Source: Flavobacterium sp. (lineage in GTDB: Bacteria; Bacteroidota; Bacteroidia; Flavobacteriales; Flavobacteriaceae). From it: 64,000 nt of DNA. This document shows positions 4,446-11,991 of this stretch, one piece after another; the first letter of the stretch is position 1; every line of letters starts with the position of its first letter. The DNA is taken from NCBI GenBank assembly GCA_030591585.1, contig JAUVAS010000001.1, forward strand, positions 122,036 to 186,035, in the 5' to 3' direction. The position numbers and the translations under genes were made by a program. The notes under the pieces were generated by a model. It did no database searches and was not told the origin of the DNA. It saw only the letters and a list, made by a program, of their open reading frames with translations.

Positions 4446-4504
4446 TGTAGAATAATTAAGGCAACAATTTACAAATTAAATAAAACCCAATCTTAAAATA
4501 ACTG

Positions 4505-4512
4505 TATTTTTG
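4505..4512 (+). promoter_or_regulatory. Putative -7 box upstream of purD
   Basis: TATTTTTG matches the Bacteroidota consensus TAnnTTTG and lies 24 bases before the purD ATG. No convincing -33 TTG element is visible at the expected spacing, so this rests on the -7 box and position alone. Confidence 0.5.
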
Positions 4513-4536
4513 CAATAGTTTTTAAACAGGAAACCC

Positions 4537-5811
4537 ATGAATATTTTAATATTAGGCTCCGGAGGTCGTGAACATACATTTGCTTACAAAATTGCCCAAA
4601 GCAATCGTTGTGAGCAGCTTTTTGTAGCCCCAGGAAATGCAGGAACTTCAGAGATGGCTATCAACATTCCAATTTCTGTAAACGATTTTGAAGCGATAAA
4701 AAATTGTGTGTTAGAAAATAATATTAAAATGGTAATTGTAGGCCCAGAAGACCCTTTGGTAAATGGAATTGCAGATTATTTTTTAGCCTCAGAGAAATTA
4801 AAAAATGTGATGTTTATTGGTCCCTCAAAAGCAGGTGCTTTACTTGAAGGAAGTAAAGAACGGGCTAAAGAGTTTATGATAGACCATCAAATACCAACAG
4901 CTGCCTACCAAAGTTTTACCAATAAAACATTAGCCGAAGGGAAGCAGTTTTTAGAAACGCTTAATTCGCCTTATGTTTTAAAAGCGGATGGATTGGCCGC
5001 TGGGAAGGGAGTATTAATCATCAATGATATTGACGAAGCAAAACAAGAATTAGAAAACATGCTTTCTAATGCTAAGTTTGGTGTTGCAAGCGAAACGGTA
5101 GTAATTGAAGAGTTTTTAGACGGAATAGAATTAAGCGTTTTTGTACTTACCGATGGGAAAAACTATAAAATACTTCCCACGGCAAAAGATTATAAACGTA
5201 TTGGCGAAGGAGATACGGGATTAAATACGGGTGGTATGGGAGCGATTTCCCCAGTTCCATTTGTAGATGAAGTCTTAATGCAGAAAATTGAAGAACGTAT
5301 TGTAAAACCTACGGTCAACGGACTTCAAAAAGAGAATATAGGTTATAAAGGGTTTGTGTTTATTGGGTTGATAAATGTAAATAACGAACCTTTGGTGATT
5401 GAGTATAATGTTAGAATGGGAGATCCAGAAACCGAAGTGGTACTACCAAGAATAAAGTCTGATTTGGTAGCGTTATTTGAAGCAACTTTCAATCAGAAAT
5501 TAGATGAAGTTTCTATAGAAATTGATGAGCGAGCAGCAACAACAGTAATGTTAGTTTCTGGCGGTTATCCTGAAGCGTATGAAAAAGGTAAGGTGATTTC
5601 AGGAATTTCAAAAATAAAAGACTCCATCGTTTTTCATGCAGGAACAACCATAAAAGAAGACGAGGTAGTTACTAATGGCGGAAGGGTTTTGGCGATTACT
5701 TCCTTAGATGTAGATTACAAAAAGGCATTAAAAAAATCGTATCAAAACATAGAAAAACTACATTTTGATATGATGAATTATCGTACAGATATAGGATTTG
5801 ATCTATCCTAA
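4537..5811 (+). CDS. purD: Phosphoribosylamine--glycine ligase
   Basis: 424 residues, full family length. GAR synthetase joins glycine to 5-phosphoribosylamine with ATP, an early step of purine synthesis in the cytoplasm. The N-terminal domain begins MNILILGSGGREHTFAYK. The ATP-grasp part shows KADGLAAGKGV, VIEEFLDGIELSVF and LNTGGMGAISP, and the metal-binding stretch VIEYNVRMGDPETE. Unambiguous family assignment. The 3' end overlaps the convergent small DUF6341-like gene by 9 bases. Confidence 0.97.
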   Translation: MNILILGSGGREHTFAYKIAQSNRCEQLFVAPGNAGTSEMAINIPISVNDFEAIKNCVLENNIKMVIVGPEDPLVNGIADYFLASEKLKNVMFIGPSKAGALLEGSKERAKEFMIDHQIPTAAYQSFTNKTLAEGKQFLETLNSPYVLKADGLAAGKGVLIINDIDEAKQELENMLSNAKFGVASETVVIEEFLDGIELSVFVLTDGKNYKILPTAKDYKRIGEGDTGLNTGGMGAISPVPFVDEVLMQKIEERIVKPTVNGLQKENIGYKGFVFIGLINVNNEPLVIEYNVRMGDPETEVVLPRIKSDLVALFEATFNQKLDEVSIEIDERAATTVMLVSGGYPEAYEKGKVISGISKIKDSIVFHAGTTIKEDEVVTNGGRVLAITSLDVDYKKALKKSYQNIEKLHFDMMNYRTDIGFDLS

Positions 5812-6083: not shown

Positions 6084-7007
6084 ATGCTCACAAGCTTTTT
6101 CGGAAAATCTAAGCCTATAAATTTTATATTAGTGAGTATGTATGTCGTTATGGGCTGCGTGTTTTATTTTATAAACGTAATGGATAAAACAGAAGGGTTC
6201 CCTTTTTTTCAAAAACAAACACTTCTTTTATTAGGTTGTCTTTTTAGTGTATTTCTATTAAATTTTATAGTTAAAAAAAACAGTTTAACCCAAAACAATA
6301 CCTATTCAATTTTCTTCTTTGCTTGTTTTATGTTATTGATTCCTATACTTTTTAATAATACTGAGGTTATAATTTCAAGTGTTTTTTTATTATTAGCATA
6401 TCGACGAATATTGAGTTTGACATCGGAAAAGAATTTAGAAAAAAAGATTTTAGACGCCTCTATTTGGATTACACTAGCAGCTCTTCTCTACTTTTGGTGC
6501 ATCCTCTTTTTTATAGTACTGTTTGTCGCGATTATTCAACAACGATCCGAAAATTATAAATTAACACTTATCCCTTTTGTTGGGTTCTTTTCAGTAATCG
6601 TATTGGCAACTTCGTATAATTTAATTCAAGGAAATTCGTTTTTATGGTTTTTAAATATCGATAGAAAAATTAGTTTAGATTTTCAAATTTATGAAAGAAC
6701 AACACTAATAGTTCCAATCTCAATTCTAGCGATATTGTTAGTTTTAACGTTATTTAGAAAGGTAATTCGTTTTTCTGAAACTAGGTTAAAAGAGAAATCA
6801 AACACAACATTACTTATTTTAATCCTTTTAATTAGTGTAGCCTTAATTTTATTAACTCCAATTAAAAACGGTTCAGAATTTCTGTATTTAATGGCTCCTT
6901 TGGCAATTTTTACTGCTAATTTTATTGAAAAAGCACAAACCTTTTGGGTAAAAGAATTGTTTTTATGGCTCGCATTCACGGTTCCAATTATTATTTTGTT
7001 TTTATAA
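6084..7007 (+). CDS. DUF6427-like polytopic membrane protein
   Basis: 307 residues with roughly eight hydrophobic segments and almost no conserved polar motif. The opening MLTSFFGKSKPINFILV matches the flavobacterial family DUF6427 as I recall it. Function unknown. It is divergent from the DUF6341-like gene and is the last conserved gene before the restriction-modification island. An inner-membrane role is inferred only from hydrophobicity. Confidence 0.72.
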   Translation: MLTSFFGKSKPINFILVSMYVVMGCVFYFINVMDKTEGFPFFQKQTLLLLGCLFSVFLLNFIVKKNSLTQNNTYSIFFFACFMLLIPILFNNTEVIISSVFLLLAYRRILSLTSEKNLEKKILDASIWITLAALLYFWCILFFIVLFVAIIQQRSENYKLTLIPFVGFFSVIVLATSYNLIQGNSFLWFLNIDRKISLDFQIYERTTLIVPISILAILLVLTLFRKVIRFSETRLKEKSNTTLLILILLISVALILLTPIKNGSEFLYLMAPLAIFTANFIEKAQTFWVKELFLWLAFTVPIIILFL

Positions 7008-7064
7008 AACGAGCATGTTAAAATCCTCATCACTTAAAGGAGTGATTAATAGCGAACAGCATAG

Positions 7065-7092
7065 CCTGTCCCGAACTTGATTTAGGGTGACC
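7065..7092. repeat. Degenerate REP-like intergenic repeat
   Basis: Contains CCCGAACTTGATTTAGGG, a decayed copy of the CCCGAACTTGTTTCGGG type of short palindrome common between genes in flavobacteria. It marks the left edge of the restriction-modification island. Confidence 0.45.
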
Positions 7093-7117
7093 ATTAAAAA
7101 ACAATAGAGACAAACAC

Positions 7118-7759
7118 ATGAAAATAAACCTGTCTAAAATAGAAATAGAACTAAAAAAAAGACATCAATACCCTTATAAGTGGTATCGAAAACAAAATGA
7201 CATTTGGGACGGGTACACCAATTTTATATACACCACACTTTTTTGGGACGACCTAATTCCTAAAATTGCTACGACCGTAAAAAAATATCAACTAGACAAA
7301 AAAGAAGTGTTTTACTATGCGATAAACCGGTGGTATAATTTCTGGAGTGCAATGGCAGTAGAACATATATTTAGTAATTGTGAAGGAATTACTCCCGAAC
7401 AAAACTCAAAAGATAGAGTAGTAGATTTTACATTACAAGGAACATCCTTTGACCATAAAACTTCCGTATTTCCGAAGCATTTACAAAACGATTTATGGAG
7501 TGCTAAAAACAACAAAAGAGAGCTAATAACATGGCTGTATAAAAACCAAAGCACGCAACAACGGCAACACTTTAAAAACAGATTATTTATTATAGTCCAC
7601 AAAAAAGACGGGGAACATTGGAAATTAAAATCCGAAATAAAACTACTTGAAAAAGAAATTAAAAACTATGTGTTAAATTTTAAGCCTTCGCAATTACAAA
7701 AGTTTATTTTTACAACCCCAACCGAAACTTTAAGTGATATAATTTGGGTAAATAGATGA
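7118..7759 (+). CDS. Uncharacterised protein with a PD-(D/E)XK-like motif; candidate restriction endonuclease
   Basis: 213 residues, no signal peptide or membrane segment, rich in aromatic residues near the N-terminus. I see an arrangement compatible with a PD-(D/E)XK nuclease core: Glu82 in a helix (AVEHIF), Asp103 (RVVDFTLQG), and Asp112-His-Lys114 in SFDHKTSVFP. Together with the downstream m6A methyltransferase at 10289-11296 it could form a type II restriction-modification pair that the HTH/5mC/GIY-YIG cassette has split. The family is not one I can name; nuclease activity is inference from motif and neighbourhood. Confidence 0.6.
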   Translation: MKINLSKIEIELKKRHQYPYKWYRKQNDIWDGYTNFIYTTLFWDDLIPKIATTVKKYQLDKKEVFYYAINRWYNFWSAMAVEHIFSNCEGITPEQNSKDRVVDFTLQGTSFDHKTSVFPKHLQNDLWSAKNNKRELITWLYKNQSTQQRQHFKNRLFIIVHKKDGEHWKLKSEIKLLEKEIKNYVLNFKPSQLQKFIFTTPTETLSDIIWVNR

Positions 7760-7803
7760 ATTTAAATACATTTGGACATTATTAGTCTAAAACAATATTG
7801 TCC

Positions 7804-8112
7804 ATGAAGTCGTTAGGAAATATTTTAAAAATTGCACGTGAAGAAAAAGAAATGATTTTGAGAAAGGTATCAGCAGAAGTTGATATTGACCAATCCCTGA
7901 TAAGCAAATTTGAAAAAAACGAAAGAAAACCAACCAAAGAACAACTAATTAGACTTGCAAAATTCTACAACCTTTCAGAACAAGAACTAATCATAAATTG
8001 GTATTCTGAAAAAATCGCAGAAGATTTAAAATACACACAAGCAACAACTGAAATTTTAAGAGTTGCAGAAGAAAAAATTAATTATTACAAATCTCAAGAA
8101 AATGGAAAATAG
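7804..8112 (+). CDS. XRE-family HTH regulator, R-M controller-like
   Basis: 102 residues. A Cro/C1-type helix-turn-helix spans about residues 5-60: LGNILKIAREEKEM, then VSAEVDIDQSLISKFEKNER and PTKEQLIRLAKFYNLSE. I start it at ATG 7804; a TTG two codons upstream is less likely. The gene overlaps the 5mC methyltransferase start by 11 bases. In type II R-M systems such small regulators (C proteins) delay nuclease expression until methylation is complete. Its operator was not identified with confidence. Confidence 0.85.
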   Translation: MKSLGNILKIAREEKEMILRKVSAEVDIDQSLISKFEKNERKPTKEQLIRLAKFYNLSEQELIINWYSEKIAEDLKYTQATTEILRVAEEKINYYKSQENGK

Positions 8113-9343
8113 CAAATTAAAAGTAGCCGAATTATTTGCAGGTGTTGGAGGTTTCCGTCTTGGACTTGAAAAACACAATAATTACAATATTGTTTGGAGT
8201 AACCAATGGGAGCCGTTAACTAAAATACAACACGCATCGTTAGTTTACGAAAAGCAATTTGGAAAAGAGAACCACTCTAATGAAGATATAAATGAAGTTG
8301 TAACAAGAAATATTGAGGAAATACCAGATCATGATTTATTAGTTGGCGGTTTTCCTTGTCAAGATTATTCGGTTGCTACAACATTGCATAACTCAAAAGG
8401 ATTGAAAGGAAAAAAAGGTGTGCTTTGGTGGTCAATTCACAAAATTTTAGAAGATAAAAAGAATAAACCAAAGTATTTGTTTTTAGAAAATGTTGATAGA
8501 CTTTTAAAGTCGCCAGCATCACAAAGAGGACGTGATTTTGCAGTTATGCTAAAAAGTTTAAATGATTTAGGTTATGCAGTTGAATGGCGTGTTGTAAATG
8601 CAGGAGAATATGGAATGCCACAACGAAGGAGACGAACTTTTTTTATTGGTTATCACAAATCAACGGACATTTATAAAAGACTTTCTAAGTCTAAAAAATT
8701 AGATTGGTTACTTGAAAAAGGAACAATAGCAAATGCTTTTCCAATTAAAAAAGTGAACAAACTCGAAGAGTTTGAAATCAAAGGAGATTTAGTTGAAATC
8801 ACAAATGAATTCAATAAAAACGGGAAACTTTCACCTTTTCAAAATACAGGGTTACTTTTTAAGGGGAAAGTTTACACGACTAAAACAAGCCCAACATATA
8901 ACGGAAAAAGAACAGTTCTAGGAGATGTTCTTCAAAATGGAGAAGTAACCCCTGAATTTTTTATTGATGACAAAGACAAAGAAAAATGGGAATATTTAAA
9001 AGGCTCTAAAGCCATAGAAAGAATTTCAAAAGAGGGGTTTAAATACAAATATTCTGAAGGTGGAATGATTTATCCTGACAGATTGGATAATTCTTCAAGA
9101 ACAATAATTACAGGAGAAGGTGGAAAATCACCTTCAAGATTTAAACACGTTATAGTTTCAGATAGAGGTTTAAGAAGATTAACACCCGTTGAATTGGAAC
9201 GACTAAATATGTTTCCAGACAACCACACAAAATTGGAAGGGATTACAAATACGAAAAGGGCATTTTTCATGGGTAATGCTCTTGTAGTTGGAGTTATTGA
9301 AAAAATTGGAGAAGAACTATATAAACAAATTAATAATGGATAA
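8102..9343 (+). CDS. DNA (cytosine-5-)-methyltransferase of a type II R-M system
   Basis: 413 residues from ATG 8102. The ordered C5-methyltransferase motifs are all visible: I (AELFAGVGGFRLGLE), IV with the catalytic Cys (GGFPCQDYSVA), VI (LFLENVDRLL), VIII (PQRRRRTFFIGYH), a target-recognition stretch of about 150 residues, then IX (RRLTPVELERLNMFP) and X (FFMGNALVVGVI). It methylates cytosine at an unknown DNA site to protect it from the partner nuclease. The start lies inside the HTH gene and the stop overlaps the nuclease start by 8 bases, so the three genes are translationally coupled. Confidence 0.96.
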   Translation: MENSKLKVAELFAGVGGFRLGLEKHNNYNIVWSNQWEPLTKIQHASLVYEKQFGKENHSNEDINEVVTRNIEEIPDHDLLVGGFPCQDYSVATTLHNSKGLKGKKGVLWWSIHKILEDKKNKPKYLFLENVDRLLKSPASQRGRDFAVMLKSLNDLGYAVEWRVVNAGEYGMPQRRRRTFFIGYHKSTDIYKRLSKSKKLDWLLEKGTIANAFPIKKVNKLEEFEIKGDLVEITNEFNKNGKLSPFQNTGLLFKGKVYTTKTSPTYNGKRTVLGDVLQNGEVTPEFFIDDKDKEKWEYLKGSKAIERISKEGFKYKYSEGGMIYPDRLDNSSRTIITGEGGKSPSRFKHVIVSDRGLRRLTPVELERLNMFPDNHTKLEGITNTKRAFFMGNALVVGVIEKIGEELYKQINNG

Positions 9344-10274
9344 AAGAAGCAATAGAGTACAACCAATAAGGTTGTCCCCTGAATTTTTCCCTTTAGACAT
9401 TCATAAGTCAATGTTTATAAATGATCTTATGATTACAATTCCACAATATTATGCAGAATCTTGGGACCCAAAAGTTCTTGCTAAACATAGTAAGAATAAT
9501 AACAAGTGGGATGTGGAAATAACATATGAATCTCCGAAAGAAACAGGGAAAGTAAAAAGAACATTCAAAGCTAAATTGTCTTTGTTTTTTGCTAGAGGAA
9601 GAAAGCAAACAAGTAGTTATAGGCTTAAATGGGATAACATGTTTGCGGTTCAACTTGCAAATGATTATCCAAAAAGTTTTGTTCGGTCTTTAGAGTATCA
9701 TATTGGTGACGAATACTATAAAGAACAAAAATTTACCGAATATGACATAGGTGGTTTTAAAGAACAATTACAAGTAAAGATTAAATGGAAAAATGACAGT
9801 CCAATTATTACGATTAAAGAATTCTTTAGAGTTAGAGAGGAATCACAAGGATTTCCAAAAGTGTTTAAAGAATTAAGCTCATATTTGATAGCAGATTACT
9901 TATTAAGCTCTGAAGATGAAATCTTAAGAAGAATCCAAATAACAAAATGGAAGCCAAGAAAAGAAATGTCTAAAGAATTAAATGAAAATAATATTTACCT
10001 CTTATTAAATAGAAATCAAAAAGAACTCTATTTCGGTGAAACTAAAAAATCTCTAGCTCAAAGATACCCTAAAAATCAAAAACATCACTCTTTTGAAGAC
10101 TGGACTGAATATTCTATAATTCAATTACCTCCCGAGACTTCTGAACACACAAGATTATTGATTGAGCGCATATTAATTGCCGTTGGCTCAAAACTTTTCC
10201 CAAACACTTTATATTCAGATTTACCTGTTTTGGGTGCGACTAGAGGGCTAATATTAAAAAATAAAAGAAGATAA
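9336..10274 (+). CDS. GIY-YIG domain restriction endonuclease
   Basis: 312 residues from ATG 9336, within the end of the methyltransferase gene. The C-terminal ~95 residues carry a GIY-YIG nuclease core: NIYLLLNRNQ as the GIY strand, LYFGETKKSLAQRY as the YIG strand with its following Arg, and the catalytic Glu in LLIERILIAVG (near residue 276). GIY-YIG restriction enzymes such as Eco29kI and Hpy188I are known. The N-terminal ~200 residues match nothing I recognise and probably provide DNA recognition. The gene order regulator-methyltransferase-nuclease supports the role. Confidence 0.82.
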   Translation: MDKRSNRVQPIRLSPEFFPLDIHKSMFINDLMITIPQYYAESWDPKVLAKHSKNNNKWDVEITYESPKETGKVKRTFKAKLSLFFARGRKQTSSYRLKWDNMFAVQLANDYPKSFVRSLEYHIGDEYYKEQKFTEYDIGGFKEQLQVKIKWKNDSPIITIKEFFRVREESQGFPKVFKELSSYLIADYLLSSEDEILRRIQITKWKPRKEMSKELNENNIYLLLNRNQKELYFGETKKSLAQRYPKNQKHHSFEDWTEYSIIQLPPETSEHTRLLIERILIAVGSKLFPNTLYSDLPVLGATRGLILKNKRR

Positions 10275-10288
10275 CAAAAGTAAAACAA

Positions 10289-11296
10289 TTGGGTTCAATA
10301 GGATACATAGGTTCCAAACATAAATTATTCTCCTTTATTTCTGAAACCATTTCAGGAGTAGCAGGCAACGATCTTTCTCAAAAAGTTTTTTGTGATCTTT
10401 TTGCAGGAACAGGTATTGTTGGCAGGAACTTTAAAACAAGCGTAAAGCAAGTTATTGCTAACGATGTGGAGTTTTATAGTTATGTATTAAATCGAAATTA
10501 TATTGGGAACCACCAATCATTTCTTTCAGAAGCATTAATTGAAGAACTCAATAATTTAAAAGGGACAAAAGGATTTATTTTTCAGGAATATTCTGAAGGA
10601 GGAAAAGCAGGAAGAAATTATTTTACTTCAGAAAATGGGCAAAAGATAGATACGGTAAGAGCTCAGATAAAAACTTGGAGAAAAGCTACAAAAATAAATG
10701 ATGACCAATATTATTTTCTATTAGCAAGCCTTTTAGAGAGTGCAGATAAAGTGGCAAATACTGCTTCTGTTTATGGAGCATATTTAAAAAAAATTAAACC
10801 GTCTGCTGCCAAAAAATTGGTGATAAAACCAGCTGTTTTCTTGGAAACGAATAATAGCCATCAAGTATTTCAGCAAGATAGCAATGAGCTCATCAAGAGA
10901 ATTGAAGGAGATATTTTGTACTTAGATCCTCCTTATAATGCACGTCAATACGGGGCAAATTACCATGTATTAAATACTATCGCAAAATATGATACCTTTG
11001 TGCCAAAGGGAGTGACAGGCTTACGCGATTACTATAAAAGTGATTATTGTAAAAAAGGAGAAGTATTAAATTCGTTTACCGAAGTATTGAAAAACGCACA
11101 ATTTAAATATATCTTTTTAAGTTATAATAACGAAGGTTTAATGACTTCAGAAATAGTAAAAGAAACCATGAAACGTTTTGGAAAATACAGTTTAGAAACC
11201 ACCAAATACCAACGTTTTAAGGCCGATAAAACCGAAAATCGAAATCACAAAGCAAATCATACCTTTGAGTATTTACATATATTAGAAAAAGAATAA
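10289..11296 (+). CDS. Dam-type (D12) adenine-specific DNA methyltransferase
   Basis: 335 residues from a TTG start 14 bases after the GIY-YIG gene. The motif order is that of alpha-class N6-adenine methyltransferases: motif X (IGYIGSKHKL), motif I (FCDLFAGTGIVG), a long target-recognition region, then motif IV (YLDPPYNARQYG). It resembles the NlaIII/FokI-type branch. It methylates adenine at an unknown site. It may be a second protective enzyme of the cassette or the original partner of the 213-residue protein at 7118-7759. Confidence 0.92.
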   Translation: MGSIGYIGSKHKLFSFISETISGVAGNDLSQKVFCDLFAGTGIVGRNFKTSVKQVIANDVEFYSYVLNRNYIGNHQSFLSEALIEELNNLKGTKGFIFQEYSEGGKAGRNYFTSENGQKIDTVRAQIKTWRKATKINDDQYYFLLASLLESADKVANTASVYGAYLKKIKPSAAKKLVIKPAVFLETNNSHQVFQQDSNELIKRIEGDILYLDPPYNARQYGANYHVLNTIAKYDTFVPKGVTGLRDYYKSDYCKKGEVLNSFTEVLKNAQFKYIFLSYNNEGLMTSEIVKETMKRFGKYSLETTKYQRFKADKTENRNHKANHTFEYLHILEKE

Positions 11297-11302
11297 AAAC
11301 GC

Positions 11303-11362
11303 GGCCACTGAGCTTGTCTAAGTGCCTATATAAATAATGAGATTCCTGCTTTCGTAGGAATT
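11303..11362. repeat. Two degenerate REP-like palindromes
   Basis: 11303-11326 (GGCCACTGAGCTTGTCTAAG and following bases) is a decayed 'GAGCTTGTCGAAGTG'-type repeat. 11339-11362 holds a small hairpin, ATTCCT (11342-11347) pairing with AGGAAT (11356-11361). Such intergenic palindromes are common in this group. Together they mark the right edge of the restriction-modification island. Confidence 0.5.
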
Positions 11363-11382: not shown

Positions 11383-11991
11383 ATGTTTTCAGAAAAAGCA
11401 AACAAAATTTTTAAAGAAGTAATCGACAAATACCACGAAATTGATAATGTAGATCAACCGTTTAGTAACCCTTATAGTGATGAAACTAATTTATTAGCAC
11501 ACTTGTTATATAGAAAATGTTGGATAGATACGGTACAATGGCATTATGAGGATATTATTCGTGACCCAAATATTGATCCGGTGAGTGCGCTTTCTTTAAA
11601 AAGACAAATTGATGCTTCTAATCAAGATAGAACCGATATGGTTGAGTATGTGGATAGTTATTTTTTGGAAAAATACAACAACGCAACAGTAAAAGAAGGG
11701 GCAACAATTAATACCGAAAGCCCTGCTTGGGGAGTAGATAGACTTTCAATTTTAGCTCTAAAAGTATATCATATGAACGAAGAGGCAACAAGAGAAAACG
11801 CTTCTGAAGACCACAGAAATTCCTGCCAAATAAAACTAAATGTGCTTTTAGAACAACGTGTAGATTTAAGCACAGCGATAGATCAATTATTAAAAGATAT
11901 TTCTACAGGAGATAAATATATGAAGGTGTACAAGCAAATGAAAATGTACAATGATGATGAATTAAACCCTGTATTACGAGGAGAAAAATAG
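11383..11991 (+). CDS. DUF4254 family protein
   Basis: 202 residues, soluble, mostly alpha-helical in appearance and without a signal peptide. The stretch NLLAHLLYRKCWIDTVQWHY and the closing YKQMKMYNDDELNPVLRG fit DUF4254 as I recall it, a Bacteroidota family regularly encoded just before a GT9 glycosyltransferase, as here. Function unknown; a role linked to lipopolysaccharide core synthesis is inferred from that pairing only. Confidence 0.8.
   Translation: MFSEKANKIFKEVIDKYHEIDNVDQPFSNPYSDETNLLAHLLYRKCWIDTVQWHYEDIIRDPNIDPVSALSLKRQIDASNQDRTDMVEYVDSYFLEKYNNATVKEGATINTESPAWGVDRLSILALKVYHMNEEATRENASEDHRNSCQIKLNVLLEQRVDLSTAIDQLLKDISTGDKYMKVYKQMKMYNDDELNPVLRGEK

What the first reader, a model, noticed from the sequence alone, without database searches (positions are those of the whole stretch)
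7118..11296. Composite restriction-modification island, possibly one system nested inside another
A tightly overlapping HTH/5mC-methyltransferase/GIY-YIG cassette (7804-10274) is flanked by a PD-(D/E)XK-like protein (7118-7759) and a Dam-type adenine methylase (10289-11296). The outer two genes could be one R-M pair split by the inner three-gene system. Alternatively all five act as one defence unit with two types of methylation. Degenerate REP-like repeats mark both ends, and DUF6427 and DUF4254/GT9, housekeeping genes, lie outside.
Basis: partly seen in the sequence, partly recalled or inferred. Interest (0 to 1): 0.75.

Follow-up and report, generated by a model that had tools for sequence, protein, structure and literature searches.

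The report
One restriction system inserted inside another
In this marine Flavobacteriaceae genome a complete three-gene DNA-restriction cassette (probably acting at GATC) sits exactly between the cutting and the protecting gene of another restriction system (probably acting at CATG); related genomes show the uninterrupted pair and several other genes inserted at the same joint.

Summary
In 19 distinct loci the 213-aa gene (R213) and the D12 adenine methylase overlap by 4-7 bp; about nine more lie within 21 bp. In Flavobacteriaceae the pair sits at one site, PurD-DUF6427-[R213-D12]-DUF4254-GT9; 35 of 36 sampled genomes lacking it there keep the flanking order. R213 is an undescribed family with an invariant D-x8-D-x-K motif. 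D12 is of the M.HpyI/M.NlaIII kind: IceA/NlaIII-type nucleases replace or join R213 beside it, and CATG is the palindrome most specifically depleted around the pair. The inner HTH-M5C genes are those of Sau3AI-type (GATC) systems, but a GIY-YIG protein replaces the Sau3AI nuclease. The 2.5-kb cassette lies directly behind R213's ATGA; D12's ATG became ATA, and a TTG in a possible duplicated scrap of R213's end opens the frame. Other inserts at this joint: an AAA-DUF4143 defence candidate, a small nuclease/HTH cassette (once with an 88-bp target duplication), an NlaIII-type nuclease, and a truncated HTH-M5C carrying that small cassette. Components are known kinds; the repeatedly used R/M joint, the R213 family and the nuclease swap look new. 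No function was tested.

The parts
7118..7759 (+). R213: predicted PD-(D/E)XK restriction endonuclease of the outer (predicted CATG) system
   Evidence: No Pfam/NCBIfam/PADLOC family. 31 homologues share invariant E82, D103, D112-x-K114. Partner of D12 in 24/24 family genomes. AF2 pLDDT 91.9. dN/dS 0.07-0.14.
7756..7759 (+). ATGA: old R213-stop / D12-start overlap, still present at the left edge of the insertion
   Evidence: Same overlap joins R213 directly to D12 in uninterrupted relatives such as L026.
7770..7803 (+). Putative promoter/operator of the inner cassette (imperfect palindrome TTTGGAC-N7-GTCTAAA plus TTGTCC next to the ATG)
   Evidence: Conserved in front of the HTH gene in most cassette copies compared, in otherwise unrelated upstream DNA; absent in L129. 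Function inferred.
7804..8112 (+). HTH regulator of the inner cassette
   Evidence: HTH_3 3.3e-11; same HTH precedes M5C in Sau3AI-type systems (mostly 77-94% identity).
8102..9343 (+). M5C: 5-methylcytosine methyltransferase of M.Sau3AI kind (predicted GATC)
   Evidence: PF00145 1.3e-65, PADLOC MTase_II 2.4e-174; 83-87%-identical homologues are followed by a Sau3AI-type nuclease.
9336..10274 (+). GIY-YIG protein: predicted restriction endonuclease of the inner cassette, standing where Sau3AI stands elsewhere
   Evidence: IY, YxGE, R, E and N catalytic residues shared with a 31% homologue; PF01541 1.8e-6 in that homologue; only that one clear homologue in about 690 genomes.
10289..11296 (+). 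D12 N6-adenine methyltransferase of the outer system (M.HpyI/M.NlaIII kind, predicted CATG); TTG start, former ATG now ATA at 10298-10300
   Evidence: PF02086 5.2e-54, PADLOC PDLC03257 5e-139; start codon is ATG, less often GTG or TTG, at that position in other loci; dN/dS 0.09-0.12.
10284..10300 (+). Possible remnant of the duplicated R213 3' end (..AATTGGGTTCAATA), which supplies the TTG start of D12
   Evidence: Near-junction alignment with R213 3' end beats 99.2% of shuffles; an intact 88-bp version of such a duplication is seen in L034.
6084..7007 (+). DUF6427, conserved left neighbour (outside the system)
   Evidence: PF19992 1.2e-7; conserved order with PurD and DUF4254 in genomes without R-M.
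11383..11991 (+). DUF4254, conserved right neighbour (outside the system)
   Evidence: PF14063 6.1e-63.

Best explanation
Two type II restriction-modification systems, one nested in the other. The outer system (R213 nuclease + D12 methyltransferase, predicted CATG with m6A) is an old translationally coupled pair at a fixed chromosomal site. The inner system (HTH regulator, M.Sau3AI-type m5C methyltransferase, GIY-YIG nuclease; predicted GATC) arrived as a ready cassette with its own HTH-controlled promoter and landed in the R213/D12 overlap. R213 kept its stop codon. D12 lost its ATG and is now the last gene of the inner operon, read from a TTG. Shown here: gene content, ancestral adjacency, insertion position, loss of the ATG, low dN/dS of both outer genes, CATG depletion in genomes carrying the outer pair. 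Inferred: enzymatic activities, both recognition sites in this strain, HTH control, use of the TTG, and insertion with target duplication in this copy.
For: Uninterrupted R213-D12 pairs with overlapping ends in 19 distinct loci. Same site with the pair absent, or only a D12 relic, in relatives including a genome of the same genus. R213 genomes all carry D12; 5 of 7 further genomes where R213 has no D12 beside it carry D12 elsewhere. IceA/NlaIII nuclease (PF05315 1.8e-71) lies between R213 and D12 in L040, as a relic in L019, and paired with D12 alone in G031; M.HpyI methylates CATG next to the NlaIII-like iceA1 (PMC4450513, PMC13340068). CATG median o/e 0.50 near the pair vs 0.85 in loci without it, p=2.4e-7, by far the strongest of 16 palindromes. 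HTH-M5C precedes a Sau3AI homologue (PDB 4pxg, 1.6e-74) in several genomes. Conserved HTH operator moves with the cassette. dN/dS about 0.1 for R213 and D12 vs relatives.
Against: R213 has no significant structural match; its weak PDB matches include many PD-(D/E)XK enzymes but none above Z 4.2. The GIY-YIG protein has almost no homologues, and its one clear relative (G149) has no methyltransferase beside it, so it may not be M5C's cognate enzyme. GATC depletion in the window (0.64) is not specific. The duplication trace in the window is short (p about 0.008 against simple shuffles). The genome is a draft (116 contigs, 90% complete) and no methylation data are available.
Confidence: 0.85

Rival explanations
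1. All five genes act as one composite defence unit with two methylation types.
For: All five genes lie on one strand and are nearly contiguous; D12 follows the GIY-YIG gene by 14 nt.
Against: R213-D12 occurs alone in many genomes, HTH-M5C occurs alone with a Sau3AI nuclease, and the five-gene set was found only in this genome.
Confidence: 0.05
2. The outer system is dying: the insertion cost D12 its start codon, R213 is or will be silenced, and D12 persists as an orphan methylase while the inner system is the active one.
For: D12 lost its ATG. Relics of D12 at this site in G188 (same genus), G257 and G090 show that the outer system is lost often.
Against: R213 is intact with all motif residues and shows low pairwise dN/dS (0.07-0.14), as D12 does; CATG is still depleted in the window, 0.58.
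Confidence: 0.15
3. The inner GIY-YIG gene is not M5C's cognate nuclease but a separate gene that came in after the original Sau3AI nuclease was lost; the inner system is then an orphan methyltransferase plus an unrelated GIY-YIG protein.
For: M5C relatives pair with Sau3AI-type nucleases; the only clear GIY-YIG homologue, in G149, stands alone without a methyltransferase.
Against: 8-nt overlap with M5C, as expected of a coupled pair, and all catalytic residues of the GIY-YIG fold are kept.
Confidence: 0.3

Closest known systems
IceA1/HpyI and NlaIII systems (CATG)
   Same: D12 methyltransferase of the same kind. An IceA/NlaIII-type (PF05315) nuclease stands beside or replaces R213 next to D12 relatives (L040, L019, G031). 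In H. pylori too, different genes (iceA1/iceA2) occupy the place next to hpyIM (PMC13340068).
   Different: The nuclease here is R213, a predicted PD-(D/E)XK protein and not the IceA/NlaIII type; whole systems, not alternative alleles, occupy the joint.
Sau3AI system (GATC, m5C)
   Same: HTH and M5C of the inner cassette are mostly 77-94% and 83-89% identical to those in Sau3AI-type systems of other Flavobacteriaceae; the nuclease of one of these matches PDB 4pxg at 1.6e-74.
   Different: The Sau3AI/MutH-type nuclease is missing and a GIY-YIG protein is in its place.
Insertion of R-M genes with long target duplication (Nobusato et al. 2000, cited in PMC3031569)
   Same: L034's insert at the R213/D12 joint is flanked by an 88-bp duplication of R213's 3' end; the window shows a possible short remnant.
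   Different: The target is the joint between the nuclease and methylase genes of another R-M system, used repeatedly by unrelated inserts.
GIY-YIG restriction enzymes (R.Hpy188I, PMC2630997; R.Eco29kI from memory)
   Same: GIY-YIG catalytic residues in the C-terminal part.
   Different: No sequence match to any solved GIY-YIG enzyme; about 200-residue N-terminal region without recognised relatives outside G149.

Membership tests
Type II restriction-modification system (outer pair R213-D12) | Methyltransferase of a DNA-modifying family with catalytic motif | tested here: met
   PF02086 5.2e-54; DPPY motif in the sequence; PADLOC MTase_II 5e-139.
Type II restriction-modification system (outer pair R213-D12) | Nuclease gene linked to the methyltransferase across genomes | tested here: met
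   24/24 strong R213 genomes carry D12; overlap in 19 distinct loci.
Type II restriction-modification system (outer pair R213-D12) | Nuclease activity at the site the methyltransferase protects | not testable with these tools
   Indirect only: invariant D-x8-D-x-K and CATG depletion p=2.4e-7.
PD-(D/E)XK nuclease fold (R213) | Sequence motif D...(D/E)-x-K on neighbouring strands | tested here: met
   D103, D112, K114 invariant in 31 homologues; D103 precedes predicted strand 104-106 and D112/K114 lie in strand 109-117.
PD-(D/E)XK nuclease fold (R213) | Fold similar to solved members | tested here: inconclusive
   Weak matches include EcoO109I, NhoI, Can2, Card1 at Z 2.9-3.8; no significant Foldseek hit.
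M.HpyI/M.NlaIII-type CATG methyltransferase (D12) | Pairs with IceA/NlaIII-type nuclease | tested here: met
   L040 and G031: PF05315 protein (or a 72% homologue of it) next to a D12 with 63-65% identity to the window's.
M.HpyI/M.NlaIII-type CATG methyltransferase (D12) | Methylates CATG | not testable with these tools
   Depletion of CATG only; phage homologues (36-46% identity) bear the annotation 'ulcer associated adenine specific DNA methyltransferase'.
Sau3AI system (inner cassette) | M.Sau3AI-type m5C methyltransferase | tested here: met
   83-87% identical to methyltransferases followed by a Sau3AI-type nuclease.
Sau3AI system (inner cassette) | Sau3AI/MutH-type nuclease | tested here: not met
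   The third gene is GIY-YIG; no Sau3AI-like gene was recognised among the ORFs between M5C and D12.
GIY-YIG nuclease (inner third gene) | Y, Y, R, E, N catalytic residues | tested here: met
   Y220, Y231, R242, E276, N289 (numbering of the 311-aa query) shared with the G149 homologue, which scores PF01541 1.8e-6.

The most novel reading that the evidence does not exclude
The joint between the nuclease and methylase genes of CATG systems is a recurrent landing place for other defence cassettes: insertion duplicates the 3' end of the nuclease gene so that both outer genes stay usable, and the killing of cells that lose the outer methylase then protects whatever lies between the two genes from being deleted.
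Probability: 0.3. Interest if true: 0.65.

Novelty: new variant of a known kind. Interest (0 to 1): 0.5.

Why it matters
It gives a clear case of one restriction system inside another, with uninterrupted, interrupted, decayed and empty states all visible in relatives, and at least six different contents found at the same joint. That makes the old idea that R-M genes move by insertion with target duplication and protect neighbouring DNA directly testable. It also predicts a new CATG nuclease family (R213) without any database model here, and a GIY-YIG replacement for the Sau3AI nuclease.

Tried and rejected
Composite five-gene unit: rejected, the halves occur apart. REP-like repeats as island borders: rejected, 36 near-copies genome-wide. 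A phage or plasmid carrier: R213 and GIY-YIG gave no hits in viral contigs and GIY-YIG none in phages or plasmids; R213 one partial plasmid hit. Structure of the GIY-YIG protein alone: pLDDT 46, unusable. Known fold for R213: no significant match in solved or viral structure libraries, which does not show a new fold. PDB sequence searches for D12, R213 profile and GIY-YIG profile: nothing meaningful. RNA in the Mesonia 560-bp insert: only a sub-threshold snoRNA match, chance. Literature searches for a described nested R-M arrangement of this kind found none in the held library, which is not proof of absence.

Full report
Observation. The five ORFs described are all present on the + strand. Corrected starts: HTH 7804, M5C 8102 (11-nt overlap with HTH), GIY-YIG 9336 (8-nt overlap with M5C), D12 at TTG 10289, 14 nt after the GIY-YIG stop. 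My queries for M5C and GIY-YIG began one codon late (8105, 9339), which does not affect the results. Pfam confirms HTH_3, DNA_methylase (m5C), MethyltransfD12, DUF6427, DUF4254 and GT9. GIY-YIG is weak in the window copy (E 0.011) but clear in its homologue from genome G149 (1.8e-6), with which it shares all five catalytic residues. R213 matches no Pfam, NCBIfam or PADLOC model.

Outer pair. R213 homologues were found in 25 of 299 Flavobacteriaceae genomes (24 of them strong) and in 36 further loci of the species-level genome collection, including Sulfurovum, Neomarinimicrobiota, Cloacimonadota and Bacteroidales. In most, D12 follows directly. In 19 distinct loci the two genes overlap by 4 or 7 bp (typically ...ATGA...), and about nine more are within 21 bp. 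All 24 family genomes with a strong R213 match have D12; G252 has D12 without R213 and carries a different nuclease-like gene beside it. In G087 R213 sits between DUF6427 and DUF4254 while D12 lies about 31 kb away. In 5 of 7 other genomes where R213 stands alone or at a contig end, D12 is elsewhere in the genome. This is the pattern of an R-M pair.

R213 as nuclease. 31 homologues share invariant E82, D103, D112, K114. The predicted structure is confident (pLDDT 91.9), with D103 just before strand 104-106 and D112-x-K114 in strand 109-117. Comparison with solved structures gives only weak matches, many of them PD-(D/E)XK enzymes (EcoO109I, NhoI, Can2, Card1, PA endonuclease; Z 2.5-3.8). The nuclease assignment therefore rests on motif and partner rather than on fold.

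Specificity of the outer pair. In L040 an IceA/NlaIII-type nuclease (PF05315, 1.8e-71) lies between R213 and D12. In L019 a relic of such a gene lies there. In G031 an IceA-type gene and D12 form a stand-alone pair. M.HpyI, next to iceA1 in H. pylori, methylates CATG (PMC4450513; PMC13340068). Independently, CATG is depleted around the R213-D12 site (median observed/expected 0.50 in 14 genomes including the window) compared with 35 loci from relatives lacking the pair there (0.85; Mann-Whitney p = 2.4e-7); the next palindrome is TCGA at p = 0.009. The test ignores shared ancestry, so the p-value is indicative only.

Inner cassette. M5C relatives at 83-87% identity are preceded by the same HTH and followed, directly or after one extra gene, by a 460-470-aa protein; the copy in G107 matches the solved Sau3AI enzyme at 1.6e-74. 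The HTH-M5C part therefore belongs to a Sau3AI-type system (GATC, m5C). In the window a GIY-YIG gene replaces Sau3AI. That gene is very rare: one clear homologue in about 690 genomes, none in plasmids, phages or viral contigs. A palindromic element just upstream of the HTH start is conserved among most cassette copies in otherwise unrelated DNA, which marks the left end of the mobile unit and suggests self-regulation.

The insertion. The window still has R213's ATGA at 7756-7759. The inner promoter begins about 10 bp later. At the right edge D12's old start codon is ATA (10298-10300), and the frame is opened by TTG at 10289 within AATTGGGTTCAATA, which resembles R213's own end AATTTGGGTAAATA (near-junction alignment better than 99.2% of shuffles). 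In L034 the same joint carries a different insert flanked by an 88-bp duplication of R213's 3' end, unmistakable by score (74 against at most 20.5 in shuffles). Insertion with target duplication is therefore shown for L034 and only suggested for the window.

A recurrent joint. Contents found between R213 and D12: HTH-M5C-GIY-YIG (window); HTH plus truncated M5C followed by a 79-aa gene, a 156-aa nuclease-like gene and an HTH (L027); that last three-gene cassette alone (L034); an AAA-DUF4143 protein of PADLOC's PDC-S01 kind (L028); an IceA/NlaIII nuclease (L040) or its relic (L019); and about 560 bp of apparently non-coding DNA in Mesonia (L036, L038, L039). On a D12 tree the filled/empty state needs at least six changes. 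Within the window's own clade L026 is uninterrupted with a perfect overlap, and the window's HTH-M5C DNA is closer to that of G186 (90%) than to L027's (85%), so the window and L027 insertions were probably separate. At this chromosomal site the other two joints hardly vary: DUF6427/R213 at most 186 bp, D12/DUF4254 one insert of 563 bp and otherwise at most 228 bp.

The site. PurD-DUF6427-DUF4254 order is kept in 35 of 36 sampled genomes without the pair there. Relics of D12 remain at the site in G188 (same genus as the window), G257 and G090. The site has thus gained and lost the outer system.

Is the outer system still selected? dN/dS of the window's R213 (0.07-0.14) and D12 (0.09-0.12) against relatives is as low as among those relatives. 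Synonymous divergence is high, so these ratios average over a long history and cannot prove activity after the insertion.

Mechanism, as inferred. The inner cassette brings its own regulated promoter, so D12, now last in line, is probably transcribed with it, while R213 is probably read from further upstream. If so, loss of the inner cassette by an imprecise deletion would endanger expression of the outer methylase and select against the loser. This protected-joint idea is untested.

Verdict. A real, well-resolved nested pair of predicted restriction systems built of known kinds, with two new parts (R213 family, GIY-YIG in a Sau3AI-type cassette) and evidence that the R/M joint is used repeatedly.

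Noticed in passing
L034:6687-7700, L027:7400-8500, L190 (G200 C6) 8011-8973, L194, L195: A small cassette of an HTH gene overlapping a 156-aa protein with an ELKTT-type motif (weak FokI cleavage-domain hit, E 0.009), in three of five loci with a convergent 79-aa gene. Three of the five copies seen sit inside R-M systems: the R213/D12 joint, and two separate truncated M.Sau3AI-type genes.
   Followed up: partly
L190 (G200 C6) 6713-9839: A stand-alone Sau3AI-type system broken by that small cassette: M5C is cut at residue 158 and only a C-terminal part of the Sau3AI gene remains on the far side.
   Followed up: partly
L139 (G252 C35) 4484-5347: A 287-aa protein with a VDFFIDGVSYDQK motif directly upstream of the CATG-type D12: possibly a third kind of nuclease paired with the same methylase. 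No Pfam family above cutoff.
   Followed up: no
L189 (G073 C1) 4900-5316: A small gene resembling DUF559/Vsr-like proteins (from memory, not searched) between D12 and DUF4254, the only coding insert seen at that outer joint.
   Followed up: no
L128:5891-7060 and L130:3426-4595: A 389-aa gene without Pfam match sits between M5C and the Sau3AI-type nuclease in two genomes, so this R/M joint also takes inserts.
   Followed up: no
L157, L159, L165 (gap DUF6427-DUF4254): In many relatives without the R-M pair a convergent gene of about 220 aa (uracil phosphoribosyltransferase-like by eye) occupies the same gap.
   Followed up: no
window 11342-11361: ATTCCTGCTTTCGTAGGAAT-like palindromic repeat, 36 near-copies in the genome and none for the reversed control: a REP-like dispersed repeat.
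   Followed up: partly
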